A stretch of DNA of 64,000 nucleotides from Natrinema ejinorense (lineage in GTDB: Archaea > Halobacteriota > Halobacteria > Halobacteriales > Natrialbaceae), in the NCBI RefSeq assembly GCF_002494345.1, contig NZ_NXNI01000001.1, forward strand, positions 1,240,001 through 1,304,000. The letters run 5' to 3'. Positions 21,390-31,025 of this stretch are shown here, in pieces. The position numbers were made by a program, and so were the translations under genes. The notes under the pieces are model-generated. The model searched no databases. It had not been told where the DNA came from and saw nothing but the letters and a program-made list of their open reading frames with translations. The stretch's first letter is position 1. The number at the start of each line of letters is the position of its first letter.

Positions 21390-22439
21390 CTACTCGCGGG
21401 CGAATTCGCCGCCGTACTCGGCATCGATTTCGACCGTCGATCCGTCGGTACCGAACTCGACCGCCTCGGCCTCCGTTCCGAGCGCTGACTCGAGTCGCTC
21501 CTCGTCGACGAGGTCGTCGCTGCCGTAGCTGACGACGGCGCGTGCGGTTGCGCTCCCGTCGCCCGGAACCGAGAGCTGTTGGTGGACGCCGGAGGCCCCT
21601 TCGAAGGGCGCGAACTCGAACTGCAAACTGTCCTCGTCGCTCGCCTGGTCGTCCGACAGCGTTTCCGAGTCGAATTGGTCGGCATCGGTGTACAGACAGC
21701 ACGTTATGCCGTCGTTCTCGCCGCGCCGAAGCAGCCGATCGAAGTCGTCGTCGACCTCGTGGTTCGGTTCCCGCCGACCGGCTGCCGTCGCAACCGTTCG
21801 CTCGACGCTCGTGACCGGGTCGGCCGATGAATCGCCGTCGTTGGGATACGAGTAGGCGTACACGTCGTCCGCGATCCCGACGACCTCGTCGCTCCCGCTG
21901 TCGGAGTACACTGCGTACCCCTCCGCGTCGGTCTCGAGGGCGTAGCCCGCGTCCTCGAGATCCGTCGCGATCCCCTCGCGGTCGTACGATCCGACGAGCG
22001 CGTAGACGCCGTCAGCGTAGACGAACTGTTCCGCACCGTCGGCCGTCTCGTTGTTATCGTTGTACGCGTCGAATCCGGCCGAGGAACCGAGCCGAGTGAG
22101 CCCGAACGAGCACAGAAGGGCGACGACGACTGGGTTGCCGACGAGCGGATCGGTCGGTTCCGCGCCCGCCTGAGCGCCCTGGTCCTCGAGCAGCGTGCTC
22201 ATCGTCTCGACGTCGATCGCTCCGAAAAAGTACTCCGAGCGGTCGGTCGTCGGGAGGATCGAGGCGTACGACGGGAGGGTGCCGTCGATCGAGTCGGTCG
22301 ATTCCCCAGCACCGTCGGTGCCATTTCCGTCACCAGTTGTGTTCGATCCGTTCCCGTCGGACGTATCAGAACAGCCGGCGAGGAACGCCAGTCCACCACT
22401 CAGGAGAGACAGCGCGCTCCGTCGACGAAGTGTCGTCAT
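21390..22439 (-). CDS. Haloarchaeal Tat lipoprotein of unknown function
   Basis: This 349-residue protein has an N-terminal signal containing two arginines plus hydrophobic core (TLRRRSALSLLSGGLAFLAGC) and a lipobox LAGC, so Cys23 is probably lipidated after Tat export. The next 30 residues are a Gly/Asn/Asp/Thr linker. The rest forms beta-rich segments with ADGVYALVGSYDREGIATDLEDAGYALE and a CC pair in GITCCLYTDAD. No catalytic motif or known domain was recognised. It converges with the zinc ribbon gene with a 13 bp gap. Function unknown. Confidence 0.7.
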   Translation of the reverse strand: MTTLRRRSALSLLSGGLAFLAGCSDTSDGNGSNTTGDGNGTDGAGESTDSIDGTLPSYASILPTTDRSEYFFGAIDVETMSTLLEDQGAQAGAEPTDPLVGNPVVVALLCSFGLTRLGSSAGFDAYNDNNETADGAEQFVYADGVYALVGSYDREGIATDLEDAGYALETDAEGYAVYSDSGSDEVVGIADDVYAYSYPNDGDSSADPVTSVERTVATAAGRREPNHEVDDDFDRLLRRGENDGITCCLYTDADQFDSETLSDDQASDEDSLQFEFAPFEGASGVHQQLSVPGDGSATARAVVSYGSDDLVDEERLESALGTEAEAVEFGTDGSTVEIDAEYGGEFARE

Positions 22440-22523
22440 CTCGTGGTCGTGGTTACTGCGGACGTATTACTGTACTGGCTGGCGAGCGGGTCGGTGTTGC
22501 GGGATCTGACAGTTCGCGTGGGA

Positions 22524-23285
22524 TCAGTCTTCGGCCGGTCGTTCCGTCGCCCGCCGGAGGAGACCCAACAGCGTGTTCGCCTCGCGTTCCGTCAGATCGG
22601 CCCGGCCATACACGCGCCGGAGCATGCGCATCGTCTTGTCGCGTTTCTCCTCGGGATGATTGATCTCCTCGAGGAGCGCGGCCCACTGATCGTACAGTCG
22701 GTCGACCGTCCCCTCGGGGGCCCGAACGCGCTCTACGTCGGGGAGCTGTGTCTCCTCGAGCGTCAGCGATCGGAGTTCGTAGAGCGTGACGGTGGCGGCT
22801 TGCCCGAGGTTGAGCACCGGATAGTCGGCGCTGGCGGGAATCGAGCAGATCTCGTCGATCCGGGCGAGTTCCTCGTTGGTCAGCCCGACGCGTTCGCGGC
22901 CGAAGACGAGTGCGGTCGGTGCCTCGACGGTCGGGAGTCGCTCGGCCAGATCGGCGGGCGTCGAGTAGGGAAACCGCATGTGGCTGCGATCGTCCTCGTT
23001 CGTCACTGCCGTACAGCCGATCGTGTGGTACGCTTGGGCGAGTCGATCGAACCCGATCTCCTCGGCGTTCGGGAGGACATCCTCTCGAGCGTGGCCAGCG
23101 AACCCGTATGCCTCGCCGTCGGGGTCGAGGTCGGGCGGGTCGACGAGCAGGAGGTCCGTGAAGCCGAAGTTCTTCATCGCCCGGGCGATGGTACCGACGT
23201 TGCCGGGCGATTGCGCGTCGACGACGGCAACGGCCGGGGGCGTTCGACTCGTGATGCCATCGGTCTCGGACGAGTCGTCGCTCAT
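22524..23285 (-). CDS. TrmJ-type tRNA/rRNA 2'-O-methyltransferase (SPOUT)
   Basis: This 253-residue SPOUT methyltransferase contains the three knot motifs of the TrmH/TrmJ group. Motif 1 is VVDAQSPGNVGTIARAMKNFGF (about 20-41), motif 2 is ALVFGRERVGLTNEELARID (about 124-143) and motif 3 is YPVLNLGQAATVTLYEL (about 154-170). This arrangement, with a C-terminal helical tail, resembles archaeal TrmJ, which methylates the ribose at position 32 in tRNA using SAM. A related TrmH-like specificity is possible. The gene is read away from the origin region on its right, so it is the last left-hand gene before the ORB array. Confidence 0.85.
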   Translation of the reverse strand: MSDDSSETDGITSRTPPAVAVVDAQSPGNVGTIARAMKNFGFTDLLLVDPPDLDPDGEAYGFAGHAREDVLPNAEEIGFDRLAQAYHTIGCTAVTNEDDRSHMRFPYSTPADLAERLPTVEAPTALVFGRERVGLTNEELARIDEICSIPASADYPVLNLGQAATVTLYELRSLTLEETQLPDVERVRAPEGTVDRLYDQWAALLEEINHPEEKRDKTMRMLRRVYGRADLTEREANTLLGLLRRATERPAED

Positions 23286-23479
23286 TGGATTCTCGATGGG
23301 ACGGAGGGACGGGACGTGTTGGTTCGCGCGTCGTCGGTTCGGTTTCGACGCCGTCGATAGGGATGAGCCGGGACGGAGACGACGTGATGGTGATCGTTCA
23401 TAACGGGAGTACGGACCGGGAGCGCAAAAAAGAGCGCGTTCGGCGACTGAGACGTTCTGTGTAACTGTCTCATTCGTGA

Positions 23480-23540
23480 CTAGCTCTAGTATCTATCTAC
23501 TAGAACGGGTGTTACTAGACTAGAACTAAACTAGACTAGA
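23480..23540. repeat. CTAG-dense AT-rich tract in the origin
   Basis: Seven CTAG tetranucleotides occur in 60 bp, beginning at 23480, 23486, 23500, 23515, 23520, 23531 and 23536. An 11 bp direct repeat, ACTAGACTAGA, is present at 23514-23524 and 23530-23540. CTAG is rare in haloarchaeal DNA, so this is a clear local anomaly next to the ORBs. Confidence 0.85.
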
Positions 23541-23660
23541 TCTCTCGATCTCGCCACGGGTTGGACACAGATCAAAGCGAGTCACAGATCGACGGCGGGA
23601 ACGGATTTCTGGACCGTCGTCGTACTGGGTTCGGTGACATCGGCTGGGTGGGTAGGGGAG

Positions 23661-23683
23661 ACACACCCCCGTCGCGTTTGTAA
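23661..23683 (-). repeat. Origin recognition box 1 (reverse orientation)
   Basis: Read on the minus strand this is TTACAAACGCGACGGGGGTG plus GTGT-type tail. It is the exact reverse complement of the box at 23809-23831 over all 23 bases. It has the full G-string. Confidence 0.9.
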
Positions 23684-23714
23684 GCCGAACTACGTGTGGG
23701 GCCTCTGTTTCACA

Positions 23715-23737
23715 ACACACCTGTCCCGCGGATGTAA
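23715..23737 (-). repeat. Origin recognition box 2 (reverse orientation)
   Basis: On the minus strand the core TTACATCCGCGG and the distal GGTGTGT are conserved, but the middle G-string is interrupted (GACAGG). It is probably a weaker Orc1 site. Confidence 0.8.
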
Positions 23738-23808
23738 ATCAGGCTTCGAGACCGATTCTGCTCCCGAAAAACCCGATATTCTCGTCACCCACCCCCGTCC
23801 TTTCACCG

Positions 23809-23831
23809 TTACAAACGCGACGGGGGTGTGT
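23809..23831 (+). repeat. Origin recognition box 3 (forward orientation)
   Basis: The box reads TTACAAACGCGACGGGGGTG and continues as the same sequence as box 1. Together boxes 1 and 3 form a perfect 23 bp inverted repeat with 125 bp between them. Confidence 0.9.
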
Positions 23832-23979
23832 CCCCATCCGGGAGCACCGAACCAGTCGCTGGCCGCATTCTCGAGTCGGTTTTCACCGGCTTTGTGGAAG
23901 CGATCCCTCGCTGACGGAACGGGCGGCCGATCCGAGTATCGGGCACCACAGCCGTCCGACCGGCCCGAACAGGCGGAAC

Positions 23980-24002
23980 TTACATCCGCGATGGGGGTGT
24001 CC
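23980..24002 (+). repeat. Origin recognition box 4 (forward orientation)
   Basis: The box reads TTACATCCGCGATGGGGGTG followed by TCC. It shares TTACA, CGCGA and the GGGGGTG string with boxes 1 and 3. Confidence 0.88.
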
Positions 24003-24187
24003 GGCTCGAGTCCGGCCCGCTGGGCGGGTATACCGTCGGACGACAGGCCGTTGCCGCCCGCTCACGTCTCACGTGTGACGGCGTGTAGCCGTCGTGGCCG
24101 GCGCTATTAGAAACGCGAGACGGGCGTCGAGGACCATCGGCAGTGACACGGCCGTTGTCACCGACTCGAGTCCCTCTGACGGTGTAT

Positions 24188-24210
24188 TTACATCCGCGAT
24201 CGATCCCCAC
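24188..24210 (+). repeat. Origin recognition box 5, next to the orc1 promoter
   Basis: The box begins TTACATCCGCGA, as in box 4, but lacks the G-string (ATCCCC instead). It ends 3 bp before the probable TATA of orc1 (24213-24219), so Orc1 bound here could block its own promoter. Confidence 0.8.
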
Positions 24211-24222
24211 ATCTTTATTTCA
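24211..24222 (+). promoter_or_regulatory. Probable TATA region of orc1
   Basis: The sequence CTTTATTTC at about 24213-24221 lies about 32-36 bp before the ATG at 24251, giving a very short 5' leader or none. It abuts ORB 5. Confidence 0.5.
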
Positions 24223-24250
24223 ATCGAGTTGAAAGGGGCGGGGTACCGCA

Positions 24251-25480
24251 ATGTCCGCCAACGACGATCGAGACCCGCTCTTTCGGTACGACGATCCGGT
24301 CTTCGCCGACGAGCGCCTGCTCGAGATCACGCACCTGCCCGGTCCGGATCGGATCGTCGGTCGTGACGAGCAGATGCAACGGGTTGCGGACGCCCTGAAC
24401 CCGGCTATCTTCGGGAGCGAACCCAACCACCTGTTTATCTTCGGCAAGACCGGAACCGGCAAATCGCTCATCTCGCGGTCGGTCACCCAGCGGGTGATCA
24501 CCGAGGCCGAGCACGACGATATCACGGTCAAGTACGCCTTCATCGACTGCGGCGAACAGAACACGGAAGCCTCCATCGTCAAGACGATCGCCCAGATCGT
24601 CAACGAACCCGACGCGAGCGGGGTCACCGTCCCCGATCGGGGCCTCGGAACCGGTGACTACTACAAGCGCCTCTGGCAGGCTATCGATCACTGTACCGAC
24701 GTCACCATCGTCATCTTGGACGAGATCGACATGCTCGAGGACGACGAAGTGCTCCGCAAACTCTCTCGAGCCGGCGAGAACCGACGGATTTCCGACTCGA
24801 GTATCGGTATCATCGGCATCTCGAACAAGATCGACTTCCCGGACCACCTCTCCGAACGCGTCAAGTCGAGTCTCTCGCGGGACGAACTCGTCTTCTCGCC
24901 GTACGATGCCAACCAGCTCGTCGAGATCCTCGAGAAGCGCCGCGACGCCTTCCACGACGGCGTCCTCTCCGACGACGTCATCCCGCTGACCGCCGCCCTC
25001 GCCGCCCAGGAACACGGCGACGCGCGCAAGGCGATCGACATCCTCCGGAACGCGGGCCGAATCGCCAAGAAGCGAAACGACACGCGGGTCACCGCGGATC
25101 ACGTCCGCGACGCCAAGGAGAAGACCGAGGCCGACCGGTTCAACGAGTTGATCGAGGGCTCTCCCCAGCAGGCCAAAGCGATCCTCTACTCGCTGACGAT
25201 CCTGACCGAAAACAGCTCCGAAAAGGAGTTCCCCACGAAGATCATCTATAATCAGTACAAGGAGGTCGCCCGCCGGCTCGACTTCGACGTGCTCTCCGAG
25301 CGCCGCGTCCAGGAAATCCTTCAGGAACAGAACTTCCTCAACGTCATCCAGTCCGAGCGCGAGGGACGTGGCCGCGGTCGCGGCGCACACGCGAAACACC
25401 GGCTGCTCGAGAACCCCTCGATCGTCAAGAAGGTGCTCCTGCGGGATTCGCGGTTGGCCGTCCTCGAGGACGAGGAGTGA
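24251..25480 (+). CDS. orc1: Orc1/Cdc6 origin-recognition and helicase-loading protein
   Basis: This 409-residue AAA+ initiator includes Walker A GKTGTGKS (65-72), Walker B IVILDEID (153-160) and sensor-type segments IIGISNKIDF and KAIDILRNAGRIA. The C-terminal winged-helix domain (about 310-400) holds LSERRVQEILQEQNFL and a RGRGRGAHAKHR wing rich in basic residues suited to DNA binding. Such proteins bind ORBs and load MCM onto the origin. The N-terminal 25 residues are the usual charged lead (DDRDPLFRYDDPVFADERLL). It is read away from the ORB array. Its position next to boxes of the G-string type supports it being the oriC1-associated paralogue; other Orc paralogues are not in the window. 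Confidence 0.96.
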   Translation: MSANDDRDPLFRYDDPVFADERLLEITHLPGPDRIVGRDEQMQRVADALNPAIFGSEPNHLFIFGKTGTGKSLISRSVTQRVITEAEHDDITVKYAFIDCGEQNTEASIVKTIAQIVNEPDASGVTVPDRGLGTGDYYKRLWQAIDHCTDVTIVILDEIDMLEDDEVLRKLSRAGENRRISDSSIGIIGISNKIDFPDHLSERVKSSLSRDELVFSPYDANQLVEILEKRRDAFHDGVLSDDVIPLTAALAAQEHGDARKAIDILRNAGRIAKKRNDTRVTADHVRDAKEKTEADRFNELIEGSPQQAKAILYSLTILTENSSEKEFPTKIIYNQYKEVARRLDFDVLSERRVQEILQEQNFLNVIQSEREGRGRGRGAHAKHRLLENPSIVKKVLLRDSRLAVLEDEE

Positions 25481-25688
25481 CCGGACGCTCGGGCGAATCA
25501 CTACCTTGCGGTCGGGGGGTGAACCCCGTTGCGCACCGTTGCTAGTTTAGTTATTCCCATTGTAGCGCCTATCTCTCCTAAACATCCACTTTGTGTTCTT
25601 ATTGGCTATAACGCAAAACAAACAACTACCTAGTAGCGGCCATGGTGAAATTTTATAAACATCGTGTCCGATCTACAACTGTCCGTAA
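25481..25688. other. AT-rich gap downstream of orc1
   Basis: This 208 bp region has a low-GC segment (about 25540-25660) with tracts such as CAAAACAAACAAC, and CTAG at 25542 and 25630. It holds no ORB-like sequence. A TATA element TTTATAAA at 25652-25659 lies about 33 bp before the ATG at 25689 of the next gene. Confidence 0.6.
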
Positions 25689-26909
25689 ATGACGAACTTC
25701 GTACGGGAATTACAATCGGCAGCGATGATGAACACGACGGCGACGGCGGTGGAGTGCGACGAACCGGTGACGTTTTCGCAGCTCTGGTCTGCGACGGACT
25801 CGTTTGCGGGCGGCCTTCAAGACAGTGAACTCACTGCCGGCGACAGGGTTACCGTCCACCTCTCCGATCCGCGTTCGTTTCTCATAGCAGTTTACGGGAC
25901 GCTCAGAGCGGGCTGTGTCCCCGTTACGCTCCCAGAAGCGTCCGAGAATCGGGACGTCAAACGCGCCGTGGCTGAAACCGAGCCGAAGGCCCACGTCACC
26001 GATTCGGGCCGCATCATGGCGCTTCTGAACAGTAGCGAATCGTTGCGCCTCGCCGTTATCGTCGACAACGAGGTACGGCTGGGGGTGTCGCTGTCGACGT
26101 TTCTCGAGAACGACGGCATGAACGGCTCGAACTCCCGCACCGGGATCGACGTCGTCCGCCGCGCCGACGATTCGCCGGGTCTGATCGCGTACCTCGAACG
26201 CGATGCTCCTGACCCGCTTGCCGTCGTCTACACGCACGCGTCCTTGCGAGCCGCTGCGAACGCCGGAACGACGCTGGGGTCAATCGAATCGGACGGCGAC
26301 CTCGAGTCACACCGCAGCGCGCTGTCGCTCTCGAACTCGATCGAACTCATGTACGGGGCGAACGCGATACTGACTGACGGCGGGAGCTATCATCCGATCC
26401 CGGACCCGGATCCGGAAACGATCCGCTCGTTGCTCGTTGCGACCGATATCGATCGGACGTTCGTGACTCCCTCGCAGTACCGGGCGCTCCGAGCGAGCGA
26501 CCCGTCCGTCGACGAAGGCGACCTCCGTGTCGTCACGCCGCTCTCGACCGCGCTCGATACCCAGGTCCGTGACGGTGGCGACGCCGTTCGTCTCTGTGTG
26601 CTGCCGGAAATCGGCATTTCACACGTCAGGTCGCCCGTCGACGTCGAAGCGGGACGGCTCGGACGGTCGCTTCCGGGGGTTCGGGCATGCGTTCTCGAGG
26701 AAGGGGGCAGCGACGAACTCGCCGTGAGTGGTCCGGCACTCATGGATGGCTATTTCGATCGCCCCGCACTGACCGACGAGACGGTCACGACGATCGACGG
26801 GGACCGCTGGATCGAGACCGGTCTCTCGGTACAGTCCCAGGACGGACCTATCGACCTCGGGGAGCGAGCGGAAACGGGACGGGCGCTTCCGTCGGACGAA
26901 CGCCCGTGA
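25689..26909 (+). CDS. Degenerate adenylate-forming (ANL) enzyme homologue
   Basis: This 406-residue protein has the body of an AMP-dependent synthetase/ligase N-terminal domain but not its catalytic core. The opening VTFSQLWSATDSFAGGLQDSELTAGDRVTVHLSD and GTLRAGCVPVTLPEAS are typical of acyl-CoA or luciferase-type proteins. The phosphate-binding loop (YTSGTTGxPKG) is missing: at about residue 180 the chain reads AVVYTHASL, as if the loop were deleted. Later family landmarks remain (GRSLPGVRACVLEEG, SGPALMDGYFDRPALTDETV), yet the expected TGD is TGL, and the C-terminal domain with the catalytic lysine is absent (usual length about 520-560). It is therefore unlikely to make adenylates. It lies 208 bp after orc1, with an AT-rich TATA TTTATAAA before it. 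Confidence 0.75.
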   Translation: MTNFVRELQSAAMMNTTATAVECDEPVTFSQLWSATDSFAGGLQDSELTAGDRVTVHLSDPRSFLIAVYGTLRAGCVPVTLPEASENRDVKRAVAETEPKAHVTDSGRIMALLNSSESLRLAVIVDNEVRLGVSLSTFLENDGMNGSNSRTGIDVVRRADDSPGLIAYLERDAPDPLAVVYTHASLRAAANAGTTLGSIESDGDLESHRSALSLSNSIELMYGANAILTDGGSYHPIPDPDPETIRSLLVATDIDRTFVTPSQYRALRASDPSVDEGDLRVVTPLSTALDTQVRDGGDAVRLCVLPEIGISHVRSPVDVEAGRLGRSLPGVRACVLEEGGSDELAVSGPALMDGYFDRPALTDETVTTIDGDRWIETGLSVQSQDGPIDLGERAETGRALPSDERP

Positions 26910-30981: not shown

Positions 30982-31025
30982 CCCGTTGCATCAGTCTTAT
31001 CACCTGTAATTCCCTAGGCGCTAGT

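What the first reader, a model, noticed from the sequence alone, without database searches (positions are those of the whole stretch)
23480..23540. Cluster of seven CTAG sites in 60 bp next to the ORBs
CTAG is normally strongly avoided in haloarchaeal DNA, yet seven copies lie at 23480-23539, with an 11 bp direct repeat ACTAGACTAGA. The tract is AT-rich, in the place where an unwinding element would be. CTAG may be a target for methylation or replication control at this origin. Two more CTAG lie beyond orc1 (25542, 25630).
Basis: partly seen in the sequence, partly recalled or inferred. Interest (0 to 1): 0.65.

Follow-up and report, generated by a model that had tools for sequence, protein, structure and literature searches.

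The report
CTAG array at haloarchaeal replication origins
A tight cluster of seven copies of a normally avoided DNA word, CTAG, marks the most easily melted stretch of this salt-loving archaeon's replication origin; the cluster is kept in nearly all relatives of its family and similar ones sit at the main origin across the order, and the word is the target of a DNA-methylating enzyme, so it probably ties DNA methylation to the start of replication, as GATC does in E. coli.

Summary
Seven CTAG lie at 23480-23539 in a Natrinema origin. Genome-wide (4.48 Mb) only one other locus is as dense: the main oriC1, with 7 CTAG between perfect inverted ORBs beside oapABC. The window array is kept in 47 of 51 non-redundant relatives with this Orc class (median 5 CTAG). 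At oriC1 across the order, CTAG is the most over-represented of all 256 tetramers between the ORBs (200 vs 69 expected). In both origin classes the tract is the least stable local DNA, so it fits a DNA-unwinding element. The genome encodes an orphan methyltransferase 50% identical to M.MthZI (CTAG, m4C). Genomes lacking the enzyme have almost no CTAG at oriC1, but nearly all belong to one clade. A ~10.5-bp phasing is seen at oriC1, not in the window array. The phenomenon is not new: Blow et al. 2016 reported CTAG clusters upstream of haloarchaeal orc genes correlating with this enzyme. New here are the exact placement on the unwinding element, independence from trmJ and from the orc gene, and fast site turnover. 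Function (methylation-controlled unwinding or re-initiation) is inferred, not shown. The two CTAG beyond orc1 are incidental.

The parts
23447..23546 (.). AT-rich, thermodynamically least stable 100 bp of the whole 64-kb window; candidate DNA-unwinding element that contains the CTAG array
   Evidence: Nearest-neighbour stability profile, rank 0 of 63,901 positions
23480..23539 (.). CTAG array: seven CTAG at 23480, 23486, 23500, 23515, 23520, 23531, 23536
   Evidence: conserved in relatives
23514..23527 (+). First copy of direct repeat ACTAGACTAGAACT
23530..23543 (+). Second copy of direct repeat ACTAGACTAGATCT
23657..23683 (-). Left arm of the inverted ORB pair (27 nt, 96% complementary, G-string)
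   Evidence: pair conserved in relatives
23809..23835 (+). Right arm of the inverted ORB pair, TTACAAACGCGACGGGGGTGTGT
23727..23739 (-). Mini-ORB-like element CGCGGATGTAAAT
   Evidence: inverted repeat I4
23980..23999 (+). ORB-like element TTACATCCGCGATGGGGGTG
24186..24200 (+). Mini-ORB-like element ATTTACATCCGCGAT
24251..25480 (+). orc1/cdc6 replication initiator gene next to the origin
   Evidence: TIGR02928, 413 bits; protein P0001
22524..23285 (-). Neighbour trmJ-type RNA methyltransferase gene; not needed for the array
   Evidence: TIGR00050; array kept where trmJ is absent or displaced

Best explanation
The tract is the AT-rich unwinding element of an Orc1/Cdc6-dependent replication origin, kept loaded with target sites of the cell's orphan CTAG (N4-cytosine) methyltransferase. 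Shown by computation: the array exists, is conserved at this and at the main origin, coincides with the least stable DNA, and its cognate methyltransferase is encoded. Inferred: the sites are methylated; just after replication they are hemimethylated; the methylation state changes how easily the tract melts or which protein covers it, so that a freshly fired origin is not refired at once. It would work like the GATC/Dam array of E. coli oriC, with m4C in place of m6A and with an unknown reader, or none.
For: Array of 3 or more CTAG in 47 of 51 non-redundant origins of this Orc class, CTAG rank 1 of tetramers in the 1-kb upstream regions (309 vs 129.5 expected), least stable 80 bp overlapping the array in 45 of 47, other bases in the array span only 25% GC against 52% in flanks. 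Second array of 7 CTAG between perfect 26-nt inverted ORBs at oriC1 beside oapA/oapB/oapC, also the least stable local DNA. Order-wide: 67 methyltransferase-positive oriC1 hold 12.1 CTAG per kb between ORBs against 1.5 in flanks, 200 vs 69 expected, rank 1 of 256. Methyltransferase orthologue at C1:1388740-1389789, 50% identical over 93% to the pFZ1 enzyme beside an MjaI-family (CTAG) endonuclease; in 97 of 108 order genomes and all 111 good family genomes; no MjaI-type endonuclease in own genome. Nine genomes without it have 3 CTAG in all between ORBs. Independent report: PMC4752239.
Against: No methylation data for this genome. The loss correlation is confounded: eight of nine negatives are one family, and its enzyme-positive members have only 0, 1 and 2 CTAG. 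Deleting the enzyme (with other RM genes) in Haloferax volcanii gave no growth defect (PMC5867850). In Haloferax lucertense, unmethylated CTAG cluster in low-GC regions (PMC11001535), so origin arrays might often be unmethylated. Many origins carry no array: most other orc genes of this genome and the same Orc class in Halorussus. No reader protein was identified.
Confidence: 0.55

Rival explanations
1. The CTAG array acts in unwinding or initiator loading without methylation: CTAG is an easily kinked, weakly stacked word, or the site of a DNA-binding protein, and the methyltransferase is incidental.
For: Array coincides with the least stable DNA; at oriC1 the pairwise spacing favours multiples of 10-10.5 bp (z about 3.2, p about 0.001-0.002 against random placement, 22 genera), as expected for a protein on one face of the helix; methyltransferase deletion is tolerated in Haloferax.
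Against: The window-type arrays show no helical phasing. If melting alone mattered, other AT-rich words should serve equally, yet CTAG tops all tetramers. Enzyme-negative genomes keep an AT-rich ORB interval but almost no CTAG.
Confidence: 0.28
2. The array provides strand marks or entry points for repair at the origin, or is a by-product of CTAG methylation in gene regulation.
For: CTAG enrichment and methylation upstream of promoters was reported in Haloferax lucertense (PMC11001535).
Against: CTAG is too rare genome-wide for mismatch repair (argued in PMC6471742); the array follows the ORBs, not a gene.
Confidence: 0.08
3. The cluster is a regulatory or promoter element of trmJ.
For: trmJ lies divergently about 195 bp away and stays on that side in most relatives; in two genomes (L025, L033) the array stayed near trmJ while lying 604-865 bp from the ORB.
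Against: Array present with no trmJ in the flank in L052, L053, L054, and 132-141 bp from the ORB in L032 and L066 where trmJ is displaced by 1.3-2.3 kb. oriC1 has the array without trmJ.
Confidence: 0.04
4. Chance or compositional artefact: an AT-rich or foreign stretch where CTAG was not purged.
For: CTAG is somewhat more frequent in AT-rich DNA of this genome (2.3 per kb in AT-rich windows against 0.46 overall).
Against: Shuffle tests, 134 AT-rich control windows with at most 3 CTAG, conservation across the family and order.
Confidence: 0.02

Closest known systems
CTAG motif clusters upstream of orc1/cdc6 in Haloarchaea with the orphan m4C CTAG methyltransferase (Blow et al. 2016, PMC4752239; HG1 in PMC10609329; cHG U in PMC6471742)
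   Same: Same motif, same enzyme family, same place upstream of orc genes, same association with the enzyme.
   Different: Those reports plot density near the orc gene start. Here the array is mapped to the least stable DNA relative to ORBs, shown at an oriC1 whose orc gene lies 159 kb away, shown to be independent of trmJ, and tested for tetramer rank and spacing.
GATC/Dam/SeqA array of E. coli oriC
   Same: Dense cluster of an orphan methyltransferase's palindromic target overlapping the unwinding region.
   Different: m4C at CTAG is predicted instead of m6A at GATC; archaeal Orc1/ORB origin; no SeqA-like reader known; CTAG is rare elsewhere in the genome, GATC is common.
Haloarchaeal oriC with inverted ORBs and G-strings around an AT-rich element (PMC3528665)
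   Same: Inverted ORBs with G-strings, orc gene adjacent, AT-rich tract.
   Different: In the window origin the AT-rich tract lies outside the ORB pair (57% GC between the arms); at oriC1 it lies between the arms.
High CTAG density at oriC2 of Haloferax volcanii (PMC5867850)
   Same: CTAG enrichment at an origin in a genome with the enzyme.
   Different: There it is a broad regional enrichment shared with GATC, possibly from acquired DNA; here it is a 60-bp array specific to CTAG.

Membership tests
Haloarchaeal CTAG/orphan-methyltransferase origin cluster (Blow 2016) | Dense CTAG cluster upstream of an orc1/cdc6 gene, above chance | tested here: met
Haloarchaeal CTAG/orphan-methyltransferase origin cluster (Blow 2016) | Genome encodes the CTAG m4C methyltransferase (M.MthZI/HVO_0794 family) | tested here: met
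   50% identity over 93% to the pFZ1 enzyme beside an MjaI-family endonuclease; specificity itself inferred from the relative
Haloarchaeal CTAG/orphan-methyltransferase origin cluster (Blow 2016) | Methyltransferase is an orphan (no cognate endonuclease) | tested here: met
   No MjaI-family endonuclease in own genome or in any of the 89 good order genomes; neighbouring frames show none. Unrelated endonuclease families were not tested.
Haloarchaeal CTAG/orphan-methyltransferase origin cluster (Blow 2016) | Cluster presence correlates with presence of the enzyme | tested here: inconclusive
   Mean 2.99 vs 0.33 CTAG between oriC1 ORBs, p = 2.5e-5, but negatives are mostly one family
Haloarchaeal CTAG/orphan-methyltransferase origin cluster (Blow 2016) | The CTAG are actually methylated | not testable with these tools
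   No modification data
Haloarchaeal ORB-type replication origin | Inverted ORBs with G-string next to an orc1/cdc6 gene | tested here: met
Haloarchaeal ORB-type replication origin | AT-rich unwinding element flanked by ORBs | tested here: not met
   Window: AT-rich tract lies about 120 bp outside the pair; the oriC1 of the same genome meets it. Hence it is called an origin by its ORBs, orc1 gene and conservation, and a candidate unwinding element by stability only.
Haloarchaeal ORB-type replication origin | Autonomous replication or initiation activity | not testable with these tools
   Needs a plasmid replication assay or marker-frequency analysis
E. coli-type methylation-sequestered origin (Dam/SeqA) | Methylation target array overlapping the unwinding region | tested here: met
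   By computed stability only
E. coli-type methylation-sequestered origin (Dam/SeqA) | Reader of hemimethylated DNA (SeqA) | not tested
   No candidate reader was searched for

The most novel reading that the evidence does not exclude
Haloarchaea run a methylation clock for replication start: an m4C-CTAG array built into the unwinding element is read, directly through altered melting or by an unknown protein binding one face of the helix at oriC1, and delays re-initiation, an archaeal counterpart of Dam/SeqA that evolved independently.
Probability: 0.3. Interest if true: 0.85.

Novelty: new member of a known kind. Interest (0 to 1): 0.55.

Why it matters
The function of the near-universal CTAG methyltransferase of haloarchaea has stayed open (PMC6471742, PMC10609329). 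Placing its target on the likely unwinding element of two origin classes, with defined sites that can be edited, gives a direct experiment on whether archaea use DNA methylation to pace replication.

Tried and rejected
trmJ promoter element: rejected by synteny. Compositional accident: rejected by shuffles, AT-rich controls and conservation. RNA element: no Rfam match in 22000-26500. The two CTAG beyond orc1 as part of the system: not conserved. Helical phasing of the window array: tested, absent. GATC as a replacement in enzyme-negative genomes: only 10 observed vs 6.9 expected. Within Natrialbaceae the enzyme is universal among good genomes, so loss could not be tested there.

Full report
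WHAT IS THERE. The window is G000:C1:1240001-1304000 of a 4.48-Mb genome. Its Orc1 protein is 97-100% identical to those of the same-genus genomes, and the named top hits are Natrinema species. Between a trmJ-type gene (22524-23285, minus strand) and an orc1/cdc6 gene (24251-25480, plus strand) lies a 965-bp intergenic origin. It has one 27-nt inverted ORB pair with G-strings (23657-23683 and 23809-23835) and further ORB-like elements on the orc1 side.

CHANCE. CTAG is avoided here: 26 in 64 kb against 88 expected, and 0.46 per kb over 310 kb of own sequence. Shuffles of the intergenic region never gave more than four CTAG in 60 bp in 20,000 trials. Other AT-rich stretches of the genome hold at most three per 100 bp. 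Genome-wide, three CTAG within about 70 bp occur at five loci only.

A SECOND ARRAY AT oriC1. The other locus with seven CTAG (C1:3308452-3308561) lies between perfect 26-nt inverted repeats TCCACTTGAAACGAAGGGGTGGGGGG, upstream of an Era-like GTPase gene, OapB (PF09846) and OapC (PF09845). In other families the same ORBs lie between oapABC and the orc1 gene of the canonical oriC1. In this genome that Orc lies about 159 kb away, yet the ORBs and CTAG array stayed together. The array therefore does not depend on an adjacent orc gene.

CONSERVATION AT THE WINDOW ORIGIN. In 47 of 51 non-redundant relatives with this Orc class an array of three or more CTAG (median 5) lies upstream of orc1. Over the 1-kb upstream regions CTAG is the most over-represented tetramer (309 vs 129.5). 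Exact positions turn over quickly: the same-species genome has several indels and one lost and one gained site, but again seven CTAG in the array, while the ORB region is nearly identical. The array lies a median 152 bp from the left ORB arm. It is present where trmJ is absent (L052-L054) or displaced (L032, L066). In L025 and L033 it is far from the ORB instead. Halorussus and other non-Natrialbaceae with this Orc class lack it.

CONSERVATION AT oriC1. In an order-wide sample, inverted oriC1 ORBs could be paired in most genomes. Between them, enzyme-positive genomes (67 after removing redundant Natrinema) hold 12.1 CTAG per kb against 1.5 in flanks, 200 vs 69 expected, the highest ratio of all 256 tetramers (those with more than 5 expected). 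Pairwise spacings favour 10-11, 21, 31 and 40-41 bp. Weighted by genus against random placement, the 10-10.5-bp period has z about 3.2. Ten periods were tried, so I call this suggestive. The window-type arrays show no such phasing; their commonest spacing is 5 bp.

MELTING. By nearest-neighbour stacking energies, 23447-23546 is the least stable 100 bp of the whole window, and the oriC1 array holds the least stable 100 bp of its 18-kb locus. In 45 of 47 relatives the least stable 80 bp of the upstream 1.5 kb overlaps the array. The non-CTAG bases inside the arrays are only 25% GC, so the tract is AT-rich beyond what CTAG itself contributes. In the window the tract lies outside the ORB pair, whose interval is 57% GC.

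METHYLTRANSFERASE. The genome encodes a 350-aa N4/N6 methyltransferase 50% identical over 93% to the enzyme of plasmid pFZ1, which sits beside an MjaI-family endonuclease. M.MthZI is the characterised CTAG enzyme of this group and HVO_0794 its Haloferax member (PMC5867850); that the pFZ1 gene is mthZIM is from my own knowledge plus its neighbour. It is present in 97 of 108 order genomes and all 111 good family genomes, without an MjaI-type endonuclease, so it behaves as an orphan. Nine enzyme-negative genomes have 3 CTAG in total between oriC1 ORBs (5.5 expected; p = 2.5e-5 against positives). Eight of the nine are one family (Halorubrum/Haloquadratum-like by inference; one matches Haloquadratum walsbyi C23 by its 3,148,033-bp chromosome, PMC3119063). 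Enzyme-positive members of that family also have few (0, 1, 2), so clade and enzyme are not separated.

PRIOR KNOWLEDGE. Blow et al. 2016 (PMC4752239) reported CTAG clusters upstream of orc genes in Haloarchaea, at several orc genes per genome, correlating with the orphan enzyme, and suggested a replication role; PMC10609329 repeats this with function unknown. The phenomenon is therefore known.

MECHANISM. Shown: array, conservation, coincidence with least stable DNA, cognate enzyme. Inferred: methylation of these sites, hemimethylation after passage of the fork, and an effect on melting or protein binding that paces initiation. Caution: deleting the enzyme in Haloferax volcanii, which can live without origins, caused no growth defect, and low-GC CTAG are often unmethylated in Haloferax lucertense.

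Noticed in passing
G000:C1:3308342-3308711 and C1:3467673-3469298 (L005, L120): In this species the oriC1-type Orc gene lies about 159 kb from its ORBs and oapABC, while three other Natrinema genomes (G001, G012, G013) keep them adjacent: a rearrangement that left the origin without its orc neighbour, with a TFB gene there instead.
   Followed up: partly
C1:2249772 (L117:7773) and C2:150790 (L127:5791): CTAG pairs also lie about 650-720 bp upstream of two further orc genes of this genome, weaker versions of the same arrangement.
   Followed up: partly
25542 and 25630: Two CTAG in an AT-rich stretch behind orc1; most relatives have none there.
   Followed up: yes
31014-31024: Close CTAG pair CTAGGCGCTAG, an unusual arrangement in this genome.
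   Followed up: no
family genomes G036, G063, G081, G093 (genus g9): The reversed-pattern control (GATC triples) is roughly 20-80 times rarer in this genus than in most other family members, so GATC is strongly avoided there, while CTAG clusters remain.
   Followed up: no
window-type arrays across Natrialbaceae: The commonest spacing is 5 bp (CTAGNCTAG), then 6, 9 and 4 bp, unlike oriC1; the reason is unknown.
   Followed up: partly
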